Assembly: GCF_004361855.1 (NCBI RefSeq)
Contig: NZ_SNWQ01000007.1
Span: 1-64,000 of the forward strand
Source: Kribbella caucasensis
Lineage (GTDB): Bacteria; Actinomycetota; Actinomycetes; Propionibacteriales; Kribbellaceae
Reading direction: 5' to 3'
DNA: 64,000 bases
Within the stretch, counting starts at the first letter, position 1; each line of letters begins with the position of its first letter. Position numbers and translations under genes: made by a program. This document shows, piece by piece, positions 29,655 to 57,295 of the stretch. Under the pieces are notes generated by a model. That model worked only from the letters and a program-made list of their open reading frames with translations, was not told the origin of the DNA and ran no database searches.

Positions 29655-30464
29655 ATGACACGTTCGCAGCACGGCATTCCAGCCACCGAGGTAGGTACGA
29701 GTGAATGGGCGATCCGCACGACCGGCCTGGTGAAGTCGTTCGGCGGGACCCGGGCGGTGGACGCCCTCGACCTCGCGGTACCGGCCGGCGGAGTCTACGG
29801 TTTCCTCGGTCCGAACGGCGCGGGCAAGACGACCACGATCCGGATGCTGGCGACCTTGTTGCGCCCGGACTCCGGAACCGCGGAAGTGTTCGGTCACGAC
29901 GTGGTGGCCGACGCCGACGCGGTCCGTCACCGGATCAGCCTGACGGGGCAGTTCGCCTCGATCGACGAGGACCTCACCGGTGTCGAGAACCTGGTGCTGC
30001 AGGCACGGCTGCTCGGCTTCTCGCGTCGATTCGCGCGAACCCGGGCCGACGAGCTGCTCGACGCCTTCGATCTGACCGACGCGGCCGGCAAGCAGGTGAA
30101 GGGATATTCCGGCGGGATGAAGCGACGGCTCGACGTCGCCGCCAGCATCGTCGTCACGCCCGACCTGCTCTTTCTCGACGAACCCACCACCGGCCTGGAC
30201 CCACGCAGCCGGAATCAGGTCTGGGAGATCGTCGCGACGCTGGTCGAACACGGCTCGACCGTGCTGCTGACGACCCAGCACATGGACGAGGCGGACCGGC
30301 TCGCCGACCTGATCGCCGTGATCGACCACGGACGCGTGATCGCCGAGGGCACACCCGCCCAGCTGAAGGTCTCGGTCGCAGCCGACTCCGATGCGCAGCC
30401 CACTCTCGACGATGTGTTCCTGGCGCTCACCGGGCACCCAGCCGACAAGGAGTTCGCACTGTGA
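29655..30464 (+). CDS. ABC exporter ATP-binding protein (DrrA-like)
   Basis: The product has 269 aa with intact nucleotide-binding motifs: Walker A '[10 protein letters not shown]', signature '[12 protein letters not shown]', Walker B '[13 protein letters not shown]' and the switch His in '[17 protein letters not shown]'. The C-terminus resembles DrrA-type drug-export ATPases ('[12 protein letters not shown]'). AGGAGG precedes the ATG. It overlaps the permease gene (GTGA), forming a two-component exporter probably under the divergent two-component system. Confidence 0.94.
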
Positions 30465-31282
30465 CCGCATCTCTTGCCACCGGCAACCTTCATGACGCCC
30501 TCTCACCGATCGCGCGGCAGACGCTACCCGGTCGGCTGTCGACCACTGGAGTATTCGCTTGGCGCGCGTTGGTGAAGCTCAGGCGCGTGCCCGAGCAGAT
30601 GACTGACGCGATCGTCCTCCCGGTCCTCTTCACCCTCATGTTCACCTACCTGTTCGGCTCGGCGCTGTCGGGATCCACGGGCGCTTACCTCCACGAGTTG
30701 CTACCCGGCACGCTGGTGTTCACCGCCTTGCTGGTCACCGTCTACACCGGCCTGGTGCTGAAGACCGACCTCGACCGCGGCGTACTCGACCGGTTCCGGT
30801 CCATGCCGATGTGGCGGCCAGCGCTCATCGCCGGCAGCCTGCTCGGTGACGCCGGACGCTACCTGGTCTCCACCACGATCGTGATCGGCCTCGGCCTGCT
30901 GATGGGTTTCCGACCCGCAGGCGGGATCACCGGCGTCCTGTCCGGGATCGCGCTTGTATTGCTGTTCGCCTACAGCCTGTCCTGGATCTGGACGACGCTG
31001 GCGCTGCTGGTACGGACCCCCGCCACCTTGACGATGGCAAGCTTCCTGGTCCAGTTCCCGCTGACCTTCATGAGCAACGTGTTCGTCGACCCGGCAACCA
31101 TGCCGGGCTGGCTGCGGACCTTCGTCGAGGCGAATCCGGTCAGCCATCTGGTGACCACCGAGCGAGCGTTGATGGACGGGACCGCGACCACCGGACAGGT
31201 GGTCGGCGTACTGCTGGCGGCAGCGGCAGTGACCGCGGTGTTCGCGCCGTTGACCATGTACCTGTACCGGAGTCAGCGATGA
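30461..31282 (+). CDS. ABC-2 type exporter permease (DrrB-like)
   Basis: The product has 273 aa and six predicted TM segments. The ABC-2 segment '[20 protein letters not shown]' after an amphipathic N-terminus and the conserved '[15 protein letters not shown]'-like loop ('[20 protein letters not shown]') are typical. It starts with GTG overlapping the ATPase stop. It exports small lipophilic molecules in the DrrAB family; the substrate here is unknown. The next gene, a methyltransferase, is also coupled by ATGA. Confidence 0.92.
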
Positions 31283-51286: not shown

Positions 51287-51304
51287 CGCTTACGAAGGCG
51301 GCTG

Positions 51305-51401
51305 TCAGCGCTTGGTACGGGCCGCCAGGCCTTCCGCGGTGCCTACCGGCATGACGGAGGCGATGACGGCGACGACGACGCTGAGGACGTTCAGCATGGT
51401 C
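51305..51401 (-). pseudogene. 3' fragment of a small membrane protein gene (YeaQ/GlsB-like), split by an IS
   Basis: On the minus strand the codons read T-M-L-N-V-L-S-V-V-V-A-V-I-A-S-V-M and continue to 'PVGTAEGLAARTKR' before TGA (51305-51307). This is a membrane-helix end without its own Shine-Dalgarno. Joined across the IS at the shared GGTC it continues the frame of the fragment at 53134-53234. It could alternatively be read as an independent 30-aa peptide from the ATG at 51397. Confidence 0.5.
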
Positions 51402-51421
51402 TAGCGAGGAACCCCGGGTGT

Positions 51422-51868
51422 TCACGCGCTGGGGAAGTCGCGTCTGTGGTCTGCTTTGACCCGGAGCCTATGAGGGTGTTTCTGCTGCTCGATGTACTCG
51501 TTGATGATCGACAGGGGGGCGCCGCCGCAGGAGGGTGACCAGAAGTGTTCGCCCGACAGGTACTTGTGGATGTGGTCGGGGTAGTCCAAGCGGAGCCGTC
51601 GGGCGGACACGCCCTTGAGTGAACCGACCAGCTTGGACAGGCCGACTTTCGGCGGGCAGTGGCCGAGGAGGTGGACGTGATCCCGTCCGCCGTTGAACTC
51701 GAGCCGCTCTGTGTCGGGGTCCGCGCACACGTTCCGCATGACCTCCTCGCACCGGGTCAGGATCTCGTCGGTGAACGGTCCGTGCCGGTGCTTGGGTGTG
51801 AAGACCAAATGCGCGTGGAGGATGGAGGCGATCGTTCGTCGCCTGCGAATGCCGGTGTTTGGTCCCAT
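51422..51868 (-). CDS. tnpA: IS200/IS605 Y1 transposase TnpA
   Basis: The product has 148 aa. The HUH metal motif is H-V-H at 64-66 ('GRDHVHLLGH'), and the catalytic tyrosine is Tyr125 in 'IINEYIEQQ'. Both are intact, so the enzyme may be active. It cuts and rejoins single-stranded element ends. The ATG at 51868 faces the tnpB start 34 bp away, with an inverted repeat between them. Longer frames upstream lie antisense to tnpB. Confidence 0.92.
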   Translation of the reverse strand: MGPNTGIRRRRTIASILHAHLVFTPKHRHGPFTDEILTRCEEVMRNVCADPDTERLEFNGGRDHVHLLGHCPPKVGLSKLVGSLKGVSARRLRLDYPDHIHKYLSGEHFWSPSCGGAPLSIINEYIEQQKHPHRLRVKADHRRDFPSA

Positions 51869-51872
51869 CGAG

Positions 51873-51892
51873 GTAACAGAGAGTGATGTTAC
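51873..51892. promoter_or_regulatory. Inverted repeat between tnpA and tnpB
   Basis: GTAACA-N8-TGTTAC lies centrally in the 33-bp gap between the two divergent start codons. It is a candidate operator or translational hairpin limiting transposase expression. Confidence 0.45.
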
Positions 51893-51901
51893 GATCGCGT
51901 C

Positions 51902-53059
51902 GTGAAGCTCGTCGTGCAGGTCAAACTGATCCCGGATGCCGGGCAGGCGCCGGTACTCGGCGCGACCCTGCGCACGGTCAACGAGCGGGCGAACTGGGTG
52001 TCGGGCGTGGCGTTCGAGCGGGGTGTTCCGCGGGAGTATGAGCTGCGCAAGCACACCTATGCCGAGCTGAAGGTGGCCGGGCTGGGAGCCCAGGCCGCGC
52101 AGCAGACGATCAAGAAGGTCCGCGACGCCTACACCACGCTGACGGCGAACATCCGCGCTGGGAACCTCGGCAAGCCGGGATCGAAGCGCCGGACCAGGGC
52201 CGAATCCAGGCCCATCGTCTTCCGGCCAGATGCCGCACACCCCTACGACGACCGGTGTCTGTCCTGGCAGTACGACGCGCAGACCGTCAGCATCTGGACG
52301 GTGGCCGGGCGGCTCAAGAACCTGCGGTTCGCCTGCTCCGCCGACCAGCTCAAGACGCTGCGCGAGTACCGGCAAGGCGAGTCCGATCTGCTCGAGCGCG
52401 ATGGCGTGTTCTTCCTGATCGCCGTGTGCGAGGTCCCCGAGGCCGAGCAGTACACCCCGGATGGGTTTGTCGGTGTGGACCTCGGCATCGTCAACATCGC
52501 CACCACGTCCACCGGCTACCGGGCCGCCGGTCGCAGCCTGAACCGGCACCGCACGCGGCAGCTCGACCTGCGCAAGAAGCTCCAGGCCAAGCACACCAAG
52601 TCCGCGAAGCGACGGCTGAAGAACCGCCGCCGCAAGGAACGGCGGCACGCCGCGAACGTCAACCACATCATCGCCAAACAGATCGTGACCGAGGCTGAAC
52701 GCACCTCGTCCGGTATCGCCCTGGAAGACCTGGGCGGCATCCGGCAGAGGGTACGGCTCCGCAAGCCCCAACGGGTCACACTCCACTCCTGGGCCTTCCA
52801 CCAGCTCGGCGCCTTCATCGAGTACAAGGCCCGACGGGCCGGTGTCCCACTGGAGTACGTCGACCCGGCCTACACCAGCCAGGAATGCGCCGAGTGCCAT
52901 CACATCGACAAGAACAACCGGGCCACCCAGGCCCTCTTCGTCTGCCGGGCGTGCGGGGTCGTTGCCCACGCCGACCGGAACGCCTCCCGCAACATCGCCG
53001 CCCGCGGCGAGACCGCGTGGATAGCGGGGCGTGAGTCACGCGTCCCCGCCACCCCATAG
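51902..53059 (+). CDS. tnpB: TnpB RNA-guided nuclease, IS605 type
   Basis: The 385-aa length is that of compact TnpBs. The RuvC core is complete: Asp in 'VGVDLGIVNIATT', Glu in 'SGIALEDLGGIRQR' and the last Asp in 'HADRNASRNIAARG'. The zinc ribbon has two C-x-x-C pairs ('CAEC' and 'CRAC'). TnpB proteins use an omega RNA made from the element's right end to cut DNA next to a short motif. The stop codon sits inside a hairpin (53050-53064). Confidence 0.92.
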   Translation: MKLVVQVKLIPDAGQAPVLGATLRTVNERANWVSGVAFERGVPREYELRKHTYAELKVAGLGAQAAQQTIKKVRDAYTTLTANIRAGNLGKPGSKRRTRAESRPIVFRPDAAHPYDDRCLSWQYDAQTVSIWTVAGRLKNLRFACSADQLKTLREYRQGESDLLERDGVFFLIAVCEVPEAEQYTPDGFVGVDLGIVNIATTSTGYRAAGRSLNRHRTRQLDLRKKLQAKHTKSAKRRLKNRRRKERRHAANVNHIIAKQIVTEAERTSSGIALEDLGGIRQRVRLRKPQRVTLHSWAFHQLGAFIEYKARRAGVPLEYVDPAYTSQECAECHHIDKNNRATQALFVCRACGVVAHADRNASRNIAARGETAWIAGRESRVPATP

Positions 53060-53099
53060 GGGTGTCCGGACGGAGGAGGCCACACCACACCCAGTGGTG
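53050..53099 (+). ncRNA. Right-end hairpins, candidate omega-RNA scaffold
   Basis: CACCCC-ATA-GGGGTG (53050-53064) overlaps the tnpB stop, and CACCAC-ACCCA-GTGGTG (53083-53099) follows 34 bp before the inferred right end. In IS605-type elements the omega RNA spans the tnpB 3' end and the right end, with the guide beginning at the host junction (about 53134). The RNA boundaries are inferred. Confidence 0.45.
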
Positions 53100-53133
53100 C
53101 CCTACCTCCAAGCCCAGCCCTCACGGCCGGGTC

Positions 53134-53234
53134 AAGATGACTTCGAAGATGCTGCCGGTGCCGAGGGGGTTGGCGATCATGCCGCCGATCACGGAGCCGG
53201 CGAGGCCGAGCAGCAGCGTGGCGAAGAGGCCCGC
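53134..53234 (-). pseudogene. 5' fragment of the split YeaQ/GlsB-like membrane protein gene
   Basis: The minus-strand frame reads 'AGLFATLLLGLAGSVIGGMI' and then 'ANPLGTGSIFEVILT' up to the IS junction. The Gly-rich helix followed by G-T-G-S-I-F-E matches the GlsB/YeaQ/YmgE (transglycosylase-associated) family. The N-terminal part is lost: an in-frame TGA (53235-53237) precedes it and no start is found. The region 53238-53440 holds no other gene that I can support. Confidence 0.6.
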
Positions 53235-53440
53235 TCACCAGACGGCCGACACTCACCCTGCTCGCACCCGGAGGCGACCCCCAGAAGACCCGCGCCTCGT
53301 TCCTGACCGGTCGGGTCCGGCCCTCTGACCAGGACCACTCGGCTGGTGTCGTCCGGTCATGCCAAGATGTGCAGGATGACCGACTGGGCCGGCACCCGTG
53401 GAGTGGCGGCTCGACCACCGAGTCGCCCGGAGGAGCGAAG

Positions 53441-53795: not shown

Positions 53796-54158
53796 TCAGT
53801 CGTCTTCCAGTACCGAGCGGGCGATCCGGAAGGCCGTGTTCGCGTCCGGTACGCCGCAGTAGACCGCGGTCTGCAGGAGTACCTCGGTGATCTCCTCGAT
53901 GGTGACGCCGTTGGTCAGTGCGGCGCGCAGGTGCATCGCGAGTTCCTCATGGTGGCCTCGGGCAACCAACGCGGTCAGGGTCACGATCGAGCGGGTCCGT
54001 CGGTCGAGCCCTGGCCGCGTCCAGATCCCACCCCAGGCGTACTCGGTGATGAAGTCCTGGAAGTCGCGGGTCAGGTCGGTCCGCTCGGCGAGCGCCCGGT
54101 CGACATGGGCGTCGCCGAGCACCTCGCGGCGTACCCGCAGGCCGTCTTCGTAACTCAT
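53796..54158 (-). CDS. pcaC: 4-carboxymuconolactone decarboxylase
   Basis: The product has 120 aa, the family size. Typical segments are 'RREVLGDAHVDRALAE', 'EYAWGGIWTRPGLDRRTRSI' and 'ARGHHEELAMHLRAALTNGV' with the proton-transfer His and Glu. It converts 4-carboxymuconolactone to 3-oxoadipate enol-lactone. Many actinobacteria have PcaC fused to PcaD (PcaL); here they are separate. It is the last gene of the operon and overlaps pobA by ATGA. Confidence 0.9.
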   Translation of the reverse strand: MSYEDGLRVRREVLGDAHVDRALAERTDLTRDFQDFITEYAWGGIWTRPGLDRRTRSIVTLTALVARGHHEELAMHLRAALTNGVTIEEITEVLLQTAVYCGVPDANTAFRIARSVLEDD

Positions 54159-55345
54159 AGCACCCTCTCGTCGGGCCAGCCGGTGTAGCCCTCGGCCAGG
54201 TAGGCGGATCCGGCCGCGGACGACACCAGCCAGCTGAGTTCGCCCAGTTGCCTGCGCTCGTCGAAGTCGCTGCCGTTGGCCTCACGGTGGAGCATCGTGG
54301 TCATCCAGTAGGAGAAGTGCTGAGCCTTCCACACCCGGTCCAGCGCGCGTGGGGTGTAGGCGTCGAGTACGTCGAGGTCCTGGCGCCCCAATGCATCCAC
54401 GACGATGTCGGCGAGCACACGGGCGTCGGCCAGCGCGAGGTTGAGGCCCTTCGCCCCGGTCGGTGGGACGGTGTGGGCGGCATCTCCCGCCAGCAGGAGG
54501 CGACCGTGCCGCATCGGGCTCTGTACGAAGCTGCGGAACGGCAGGACGGTTCGCTCGATCACCGGTCCCTCCTTGAGCTGGAACCCGTCCTCGCCACTGA
54601 GCCGCGAGTGCAGTTGGTCCCAGATCCGGTCGTCGGACCAGTCCTCCGGCTGCTCGTTCGGGTCGCACTGGAAGTACATCCGCTGCACGTCCTCGGTGCG
54701 CTGGCTGATCAACGCGAACCCTTGTGGTGAACGGGTGTAGATCAGCTCGGGCGCACTCGGCGGAGCTTCGACGAGTACGCCGAACCAGGCGTACGGATAC
54801 TCCCGGAAGTACTGATTGCGATCGGCAACGAGTTCGCGGCAGATACTGCGGGAGCCGTCGCACCCGATCACCAGGTCCGCCTGGATCTCGTACGTCGCGC
54901 CGTCGGCCACGTACCGGACGTTCGGCCGATCGAGAACACCGTCGATCCGCGTGCCGGCGATCCCATACCGCAGGTCGGCGCCGGCACGGGATCGAGTCCG
55001 GTACAAGTCGGCGAAGACCGCGGTCTGCGGGTAGAGCCAGACCGATGCGCCGACCAGTTTCTGGAAGTCGATGCGATGACTCACACCGCCGAAGCGCAGT
55101 GCGATGCCTTCGTGTTCGTGGCCGTCCTTCAGTACCCGGTCGGACGCCCCCGAGTCGTTGAGCAGCCGGACGCTGCCCGCCTCGAGGATGCCGGCCCGAT
55201 GGGTGGTCTCGATCTGCTCCACCGTGCGGTGGTCGACCACGACGGACTCGACGCCCGCAAGGTGCAGGAGATGGGACAGCATCAGCCCGGCGGGACCGCC
55301 GCCGACGATTGCGACCTGGGTCCGGGTCGTCCTGTGGTCGGTCAC
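54155..55345 (-). CDS. pobA: 4-hydroxybenzoate 3-monooxygenase
   Basis: The product has 396 aa. FAD motifs are 'VAIVGGGPAGLMLSHLLHLA' at the N-terminus and 'LLLAGDAAHTVPPTGAKGLN' in the C-terminal half. The substrate/NADPH region has 'DLVIGCDGSRSICRELV'. It hydroxylates 4-hydroxybenzoate to protocatechuate, feeding the pca genes around it. It overlaps pcaD and pcaC by 4 bp each, so it is embedded within the pca operon. Confidence 0.93.
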   Translation of the reverse strand: MTDHRTTRTQVAIVGGGPAGLMLSHLLHLAGVESVVVDHRTVEQIETTHRAGILEAGSVRLLNDSGASDRVLKDGHEHEGIALRFGGVSHRIDFQKLVGASVWLYPQTAVFADLYRTRSRAGADLRYGIAGTRIDGVLDRPNVRYVADGATYEIQADLVIGCDGSRSICRELVADRNQYFREYPYAWFGVLVEAPPSAPELIYTRSPQGFALISQRTEDVQRMYFQCDPNEQPEDWSDDRIWDQLHSRLSGEDGFQLKEGPVIERTVLPFRSFVQSPMRHGRLLLAGDAAHTVPPTGAKGLNLALADARVLADIVVDALGRQDLDVLDAYTPRALDRVWKAQHFSYWMTTMLHREANGSDFDERRQLGELSWLVSSAAGSAYLAEGYTGWPDERVL

Positions 55346-56109
55346 AGCGCGGCCTTTGCGCTCAGGAGGGTGGTCAGGAGCTCGGCCGTCGCTGCCGGGT
55401 CCTCGGCGGGTGGCAGATGCGCACAGCTCTGCAGGACGTGGGCAGTCCCGGTGGCAGTCCTGGCGAGCTCGGGGGTGACCACCTGGTCGTGTCCACCCGC
55501 CATGACGGCGACGGGGACCCGGCCACGAACAAGCTGGTCCCGGAGGTCGAAGTACGCGAGTGCCTCGCAGACCCAGGCGTAGGAGAACTTGTCGGTGTCG
55601 GAGAGGGAACGCAACAAGGTGTCTACCGTTCTAGGGGCTCGGTCGGTGAAGCCGGGAGCGAACCATCGCAGTACGGAGCCGGCCACCAGCACCGGAGTGC
55701 CGGCCCGCCGGACCAGTTCGGCCCGCTCGAGCCAATCGGATGTTTGGCCGATCTTCGGCGCGGAGGCAATCGCGACCGTGGCGGCGAACGGCCCGGGATC
55801 GAGCGTGAGCTGGAAGCCGACCGCACCCCCGACCGAGACCCCCGCGTACGCCGTGGGCCGGTCGCGGGCCAGGTCGGCAGAAAAGCCGCGGACAGCATCG
55901 GCGAGATCATCAATGGTGAAAGGGCTGAGCGCAGGCCCGCTTCGACCGTGACCGGGCAGATCCCAGCCGACGACCTCCCACTCCGGCGCCAGCAGTCGGG
56001 CGCATTCGCCCCAGAGAGCTTCGACCGACGTTCCCAGTGACGGGCCGACGACGAGCAGACGCCGGCTGTTGTCGCCGCCGGCGAGCCGGGTGAAGGTGAG
56101 CTCAAGCAT
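55342..56109 (-). CDS. pcaD: 3-oxoadipate enol-lactonase
   Basis: The product has 255 aa with an alpha/beta hydrolase fold. It shows the oxyanion strand 'LLVVGPSLGTSVEALWGE', nucleophile 'YAGVSVGGAVGFQL' (Ser), and acid/His near 'MAGGHDQVVTPE' and 'SCAHLPPAEDP'. It hydrolyses the enol-lactone to 3-oxoadipate. The ATG at 56107-56109 overlaps the pcaB end by 8 bp; the longer frame would run far into pcaB. Confidence 0.9.
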   Translation of the reverse strand: MLELTFTRLAGGDNSRRLLVVGPSLGTSVEALWGECARLLAPEWEVVGWDLPGHGRSGPALSPFTIDDLADAVRGFSADLARDRPTAYAGVSVGGAVGFQLTLDPGPFAATVAIASAPKIGQTSDWLERAELVRRAGTPVLVAGSVLRWFAPGFTDRAPRTVDTLLRSLSDTDKFSYAWVCEALAYFDLRDQLVRGRVPVAVMAGGHDQVVTPELARTATGTAHVLQSCAHLPPAEDPAATAELLTTLLSAKAAL

Positions 56110-57295
56110 CGCGAGACCCCCGCCAGCGAACCAGCACAGCGTCGACGAACGCGTCGGAAGCCCCGAGGTACGACGCCGGCCCACCGCCAACCTCCCCACG
56201 CTCGGCCAGCAGATGAGTTGCCGCTGACTCTGCATGTCGGGTCATCGTGTCGGGGTCGACCTCAAGCCCGGCCACGAGCTCGGCGGTCTGGGAGGCTGCG
56301 GTTGCCGTCAGGAGCAGCAGCTGCCGACAGGACGCCCACTCGGCATGCCACGCGCCGTCGGGACGCTGGTCGACCGCCTGCGCGGCGCACAAGTGCAGTT
56401 GCGCACCGAGACCCGGTGCCTGGAGAGCAGCACTGCGGATCAGGACGGCGAGCACCGGATTCTGCTTGTGCGGCATCGTCGAGGATCCGCCACGACCCTC
56501 GACTGCGCGTTCCCGGACCTCGGCGATCTCGGGACGTCCGAGCATCAGGATGTCCGCGGCGATCACACCGAGCGCGTCCACGGTCTGGGTGAGCGCATCG
56601 CCGAGCCGCGTGACCGGCGTACGGCGGGTGTGCCACGGAAGGCCGGGCCATCTCAGGTCGAGCTGCCGGGCGAAGTCTTCAGCGAGCGCCACCGGATCAG
56701 CCACCAACTCACCGGCGAGGGACAGCGTTCCGGCAGCGCCACCGCACTGGATCGGGAGAGCAGACCGCACAGTGGCGACGGCGTCACGAGCATCGAGTAT
56801 GCCGGCGAGCCACTGGGCCGCCGTGAGTCCGAAGGTGACGGGTACGGCGTACCGGGTGAGCGTCCGTCCGGGCATGACCGAGCCACGATGATCGTCGGCC
56901 AGGCGGGCCAGGTCGGCGGCCGCCGCGGTGAGTGAGCCGGTGACGTGGTCCAGCACGTTCCTTGCCATCAGCATCAATGCGGTGTCGAGGACATCCTGGC
57001 TGGTGAGGCCGCGGTGCAGCTGTGCGCTCACTTCGGGAAGCGCCGCACGGAGGGCGTCGACGAGAGGTTTGACCGGGTTTCCGGACGACTCGACCGCAGC
57101 AGGATCTATAACGGGGCTTGGCAGTTGCTGCTCGGCCGCGGCCACCTGCTCGGGCTTGAGCAAGCCCGCTCCGGACAGAGCCCGCAACCACGCGAGCTCC
57201 ACCCGCACCATCGCGGTCAGCAGCGCCGCGTCGTCGGCGAGGTGAGCGACGCGATGCCGGCCGGGTTCGAGCAGCGACACCGATTCACCCCACAT
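56102..57295 (-). CDS. pcaB: 3-carboxy-cis,cis-muconate cycloisomerase
   Basis: The 397-aa protein belongs to the fumarase/aspartase superfamily, with signature 'GSSTMPHKQNPVLAVLI'. 'LHRGLTSQDVLDTALMLMAR' also marks the family. It cyclises 3-carboxymuconate to 4-carboxymuconolactone. It overlaps pcaG by 11 bp and pcaD by 8 bp. Confidence 0.92.
   Translation of the reverse strand: MWGESVSLLEPGRHRVAHLADDAALLTAMVRVELAWLRALSGAGLLKPEQVAAAEQQLPSPVIDPAAVESSGNPVKPLVDALRAALPEVSAQLHRGLTSQDVLDTALMLMARNVLDHVTGSLTAAAADLARLADDHRGSVMPGRTLTRYAVPVTFGLTAAQWLAGILDARDAVATVRSALPIQCGGAAGTLSLAGELVADPVALAEDFARQLDLRWPGLPWHTRRTPVTRLGDALTQTVDALGVIAADILMLGRPEIAEVRERAVEGRGGSSTMPHKQNPVLAVLIRSAALQAPGLGAQLHLCAAQAVDQRPDGAWHAEWASCRQLLLLTATAASQTAELVAGLEVDPDTMTRHAESAATHLLAERGEVGGGPASYLGASDAFVDAVLVRWRGSRDA

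What the first reader, a model, noticed from the sequence alone, without database searches (positions are those of the whole stretch)
51305..53234. IS605-type element precisely splitting a small YeaQ/GlsB-like gene
Deleting 51402-53133 joins two minus-strand fragments in one frame at a shared GGTC, giving a membrane protein with a Gly-rich helix, G-T-G-S-I-F-E and a second hydrophobic helix. This fixes both ends of the element, suggests GGTC (or ATGGTC) as the insertion motif and therefore the probable TnpB target-adjacent motif, and puts the guide at 53134 onward.
Basis: partly seen in the sequence, partly recalled or inferred. Interest (0 to 1): 0.56.

Follow-up and report, generated by a model that had tools for sequence, protein, structure and literature searches.

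The report
IS605-family transposon splitting a glsB-like gene
A common kind of bacterial jumping gene, with its RNA-guided cutter TnpB, sits exactly inside a small membrane-protein gene; comparison with undisturbed relatives shows where it starts and ends and predicts that it inserts, and should cut, next to TTCAG rather than GGTC.

Summary
The core observation is right: an IS200/IS605 element with Y1 TnpA (51422-51868, minus) and TnpB (51902-53059, plus) splits a GlsB/YeaQ-like gene. The element is 51395-53141 (1747 bp), inserted 3' of TTCAG (51390-51394), without target duplication. The TnpA target, and by precedent the TnpB motif, is therefore predicted to be TTCAG, with the guide from 53142. 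A covarying RNA structure ends at 53141, as expected for an omega RNA. The host gene is a remnant: its first ~27 codons are missing. TnpA and TnpB look intact, but this copy's terminal hairpins are weak and its right cleavage site is altered (GATGAC, not GTTGAC), so excision may be impaired. A TnpA-deleted sister copy lies elsewhere in the genome. New member of a known kind.

The parts
51308..51394 (-). C-terminal piece of the GlsB/YeaQ-like gene (stop codon at 51305-51307)
   Evidence: aligns to same-genus orthologues
51390..51394 (+). TTCAG: insertion target / left cleavage site, kept in the left flank; predicted TnpB TAM
   Evidence: empty site in orthologues; same pentamer before other copies
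51395..53141 (+). whole IS200/IS605 element, 1747 bp
   Evidence: empty-site alignment (L059) and shared ends of other copies
51412..51434 (+). remnant of the left subterminal hairpin; does not form the family hairpin in this copy
51422..51868 (-). TnpA, Y1 HUH transposase, 148 aa, HVH and Tyr present
   Evidence: Pfam Y1_Tnp, NCBIfam transpos_IS200, alignment to ISHp608 TnpA
51902..53059 (+). TnpB, 385 aa, GTG start, RuvC residues and zinc ribbon present
   Evidence: NCBIfam guided_TnpB, Pfam Cas12f1-like_TNB
53024..53132 (+). structured 3' end of tnpB and right end: candidate omega RNA scaffold (hairpins about 53024-53049, 53050-53064, 53072-53109, 53112-53132)
   Evidence: fold z -3.5, covariation in 23 sequences
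53136..53141 (+). right end GATGAC (family GTTGAC): right cleavage site, altered in this copy
53142..53161 (+). predicted start of the TnpB guide (right flank); length by analogy with ISDra2
   Evidence: position; guide concept from PMC8612924
53142..53231 (-). N-side remnant of the GlsB/YeaQ-like gene; first ~27 codons missing, homology ends at 53231

Best explanation
An IS200/IS605-family element of 1747 bp (51395-53141) inserted 3' of TTCAG into a GlsB/YeaQ-like gene, without target duplication. By precedent with ISDra2 and IS608, TnpA would peel out one strand as a single-stranded circle and join it 3' of TTCAG elsewhere; TnpB, carrying an RNA made of the structured right end plus the first bases of the right flank (from 53142), would cut the resealed empty site TTCAG+TTCGAAGATG..., so that the element is copied back. 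Shown here: ends, target, gene content, conserved RNA structure. Inferred: activity, TAM identity, guide length. Reduced mobility of this copy is inferred from its weak terminal hairpins and altered right cleavage site.
For: Empty site: 24 loci in 23 same-genus genomes match at least 57 of 59 residues of the joined protein, and their DNA runs through FE|LN without a gap; BLAST of L059 is contiguous across 53142|51394. Family ends: 48 of 55 distinct right-end matches end in GTTGAC and 38 of 52 distinct left-end matches have TTCAG just upstream. Two other copies in different genes join cleanly at the same points: L083 in an IS6 transposase, ungapped at the junction against two named Streptomyces plasmids at DNA level, and L105 in an acetamidase, ungapped at the junction against PDB 5ubu. 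Proteins. RNA. Model: PMC8612924 and PMC5934647 (passages).
Against: 14 of 52 left-end matches lack TTCAG. Some are chance or wrong picks (L091 and L100, where one search finds a TTCAG left end; L088 looks like chance); others are real left ends with TTCAA, TTCAC or TTCGG, so the last bases can vary. No Rfam family matches the RNA. The left hairpin does not form in this copy. The sister copy in the same genome has TTCGG where TTCAG is expected. No activity was measured.
Confidence: 0.93

Rival explanations
1. One reading: the element is 51402-53133, target GGTC or ATGGTC, guide from 53134.
For: GGTC is present at both places and the join is in frame.
Against: It adds VILTM to a protein that is ungapped in 24 orthologue loci; related copies carry the bases between the two sets of ends although their flanks differ.
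Confidence: 0.02
2. The element landed in a gene that had already lost its 5' end, so the insertion broke nothing functional (a question of order, compatible with the best explanation).
For: The 5' ~27 codons are missing, with an in-frame TGA upstream; the own genome shows no N-terminal part of a close copy.
Against: Equally possible that the 5' loss came after the insertion; the two pieces have no stops or frameshifts within the aligned parts.
Confidence: 0.45
3. The ends are right but the TnpB motif is not identical to TnpA's target.
For: Not tested here; relatives vary at the last bases (TTCAA, TTCAC).
Against: In ISDra2 the two are the same, TTGAT (PMC8612924).
Confidence: 0.15

Closest known systems
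ISDra2 (Deinococcus radiodurans), IS200/IS605 family
   Same: Y1 TnpA plus TnpB; insertion 3' of a pentanucleotide kept in the left flank; no target duplication; guide RNA from the right end (PMC8612924).
   Different: Target TTCAG instead of TTGAT.
IS608 (Helicobacter pylori)
   Same: Same transposase type (TnpA matches ISHp608) and same layout of ends (PMC5934647).
   Different: Tetranucleotide target TTAC.
Unnamed actinobacterial IS605 copies in Streptomyces, Nonomuraea, Streptosporangium and Actinopolymorpha
   Same: TnpB about 75-85% identical in the closest loci; shared ends TTCAG|C ... GTTGAC.
   Different: Most copies checked have the left hairpin and an unaltered GTTGAC end.

Membership tests
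IS200/IS605 transposon | Y1 HUH transposase with catalytic Tyr | tested here: met
   Pfam Y1_Tnp 99.6 bits; HVH and Tyr aligned to ISHp608 TnpA
IS200/IS605 transposon | insertion 3' of a short motif, no target duplication | tested here: met
   empty sites
IS200/IS605 transposon | subterminal hairpins at both ends | tested here: inconclusive
   clear in most relatives; in this copy the left hairpin does not form and the right one is the weakest of 30 distinct sequences
IS200/IS605 transposon | single-strand excision and circle formation | not testable with these tools
   needs bench work
TnpB RNA-guided nuclease | RuvC D-E-D and zinc ribbon | tested here: met
   NCBIfam guided_TnpB 187 bits over a cut-off of 100; D193, E275, D358 lie in VDLGI, LEDL, HADRN (residue roles recalled)
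TnpB RNA-guided nuclease | structured right-end RNA running into the flank | tested here: inconclusive
   structure and covariation found; the transcript itself could not be tested
GlsB/YeaQ (Transgly_assoc, PF04226) | passes the family cut-off | tested here: not met
   joined remnant 19.9 bits and an intact orthologue 17.5 bits, cut-off 25.3; NCBIfam PRK10457 26.9 bits, cut-off 129. Hence 'GlsB/YeaQ-like' only

The most novel reading that the evidence does not exclude
An actinobacterial IS605 clade in which the last target base differs between sublineages (TTCAG, TTCAA, TTCAC) on closely related TnpA, TnpB and RNA: a natural series for learning how transposase target and TnpB motif change together; the window copy would be an immobilised member that keeps an intact TnpB and RNA.
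Probability: 0.4. Interest if true: 0.42.

Novelty: new member of a known kind. Interest (0 to 1): 0.27.

Why it matters
The empty site turns a guess into an exact, testable prediction: ends, TnpA target TTCAG, TnpB TAM TTCAG and guide start 53142. In the held library a search for TnpB with TTCAG returned one paper, on enterococcal resistance genes (search listing only). It also shows that an in-frame join can look right while being off by 15 nt.

Tried and rejected
Rejected: GGTC as target. Rejected: that copy L036 is nested in another copy's right end; it carries a second, 17-base right-end-like sequence, but nothing element-like was seen to its left. No result: Rfam scan of 51300-53300; paper search for Kribbella with IS605; right flank of L034 in its genus, 1 of 6 genomes, its own. 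Guide sequences GL/GR as in IS608 were looked at by eye only and not settled.

Limits of the counts: one search used loose patterns on 93 sequences (window, 80 loci, 12 loci); 52 distinct left-end and 55 distinct right-end matches, the latter including three chance ones (L112, L123, L142). One search kept the best 80 of 148. One search selected left ends by TTCA[G/A], so it is no count of targets. One search used 22 loci out of 46 looked at (near-duplicates and those not fitting the pattern dropped), plus the window. One search oriented 20 of 23 orthologue loci (L047, L048 and L062 failed a motif look-up; L075 was not included).

Full report
What is there. Between 51395 and 53141 lies an element with a Y1 transposase on the minus strand (51422-51868; Pfam Y1_Tnp 99.6 bits; NCBIfam transpos_IS200 98.3 bits; best PDB match ISHp608 TnpA with HVH and Tyr aligned) and a TnpB on the plus strand (51902-53059; NCBIfam guided_TnpB 187.3 bits; Cas12f1-like TNB domain). 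Both reading frames look intact. The layout is that of IS200/IS605.

Ends. Searches found one other copy in the same genome and others in the same genus and order, and 80 kept loci in named actinobacterial genomes. By loose patterns on 93 sequences, 38 of 52 distinct left-end matches have TTCAG just upstream and 48 of 55 distinct right-end matches end in GTTGAC; the window is the only GATGAC. Of the 14 left ends without TTCAG, some are wrong picks (L091 and L100 have a TTCAG left end), while L110, L112 and L126 have TTCAA, L156 TTCAC and the sister copy L032 TTCGG.

Empty site. Of 38 genomes of the genus, the own one included, 28 had some match to the joined remnant; 24 loci in 23 genomes other than the window's own cover at least 57 of 59 residues. 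The DNA of all 24 passes through the codons for FE/FD-LN without a gap. The best case, L059, aligns base 1590 to 53142 and base 1591 to 51394. 17 of 24 loci carry TTCAG at the site; the other 7 have TTGAG, a synonymous change.

Independent empty sites. Copy L083 (Streptomyces sp. NBC_01446) splits an IS6-family transposase: its joined flanks align without a gap at the junction to two named Streptomyces plasmids (a three-base gap lies elsewhere). Copy L105 splits an acetamidase gene; the joined protein aligns across the junction without a gap to PDB 5ubu. Both give TTCAG|element|flank.

RNA. The last 140 bases before 53141 fold better than all 200 shuffles (z -3.51). In 23 right ends, 28 pairs in four helices are standard in 98.0% of cells, with both-sided changes at 4 pairs; no shuffle of 500 reached the covariation score, and all slid versions fall to at most 49.3% paired. 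The first helix overlaps the tnpB coding end, so its conservation may be partly protein-driven. No Rfam family matched at E 1.

Host gene. The joined remnant and an intact orthologue resemble Transgly_assoc but score below the Pfam cut-off, and the remnant resembles YeaQ (PRK10457) below the NCBIfam cut-off. Orthologues begin MIGFI(I/V)AGL... about 27 codons before the shared part; in the window homology ends at 53231 and an in-frame TGA precedes it. In its own genome no other close copy was found; the next match is 33% identical. Whether the 5' loss came before or after the insertion is open.

State of this copy. The family left hairpin does not form here and the right one is the weakest of 30 distinct sequences. 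With GATGAC in place of GTTGAC, excision may be impaired. This is inference. The sister copy in contig C11 has lost part of TnpA (the match skips about 51535-51809) but keeps TnpB open.

How it works. In ISDra2 the TnpA target TTGAT is also the TnpB motif, and the guide is the first ~16 nt of the right flank (PMC8612924, passages); in IS608 the target stays in the left flank (PMC5934647, passages). By the same logic TTCAG is the predicted TAM here and the guide starts at 53142. The empty site in relatives is TTCAG followed by a near match to this guide: one mismatch in 20 in seven of the 17 TTCAG-bearing orthologues.

Verdict. A well-placed but ordinary IS200/IS605 element; the value is the corrected boundary and the TAM prediction.

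Noticed in passing
L032 (G000 contig C11, about 29713-31202): Sister copy, 95% identical over tnpB, lacking part of tnpA but with tnpB open; TTCGG at the expected TTCAG.
   Followed up: partly
L110, L112, L126, L156 (left ends): Related elements with TTCAA or TTCAC where this family has TTCAG: the target may drift between sublineages.
   Followed up: partly
L036, just right of the element: A second 17-base right-end-like sequence (GGCCGGGTCAAGTTGAC) follows the right end directly; origin unclear.
   Followed up: partly
window 53232-53418: No strong match in the same genus between the gene remnant and the zf-UBP gene (matches start near 53418): a likely rearrangement breakpoint.
   Followed up: partly
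window 53796-56235, minus strand: Carboxymuconolactone decarboxylase, FAD-binding monooxygenase and alpha/beta hydrolase genes in a row, as in aromatic-acid breakdown (Pfam; pathway from recall).
   Followed up: no
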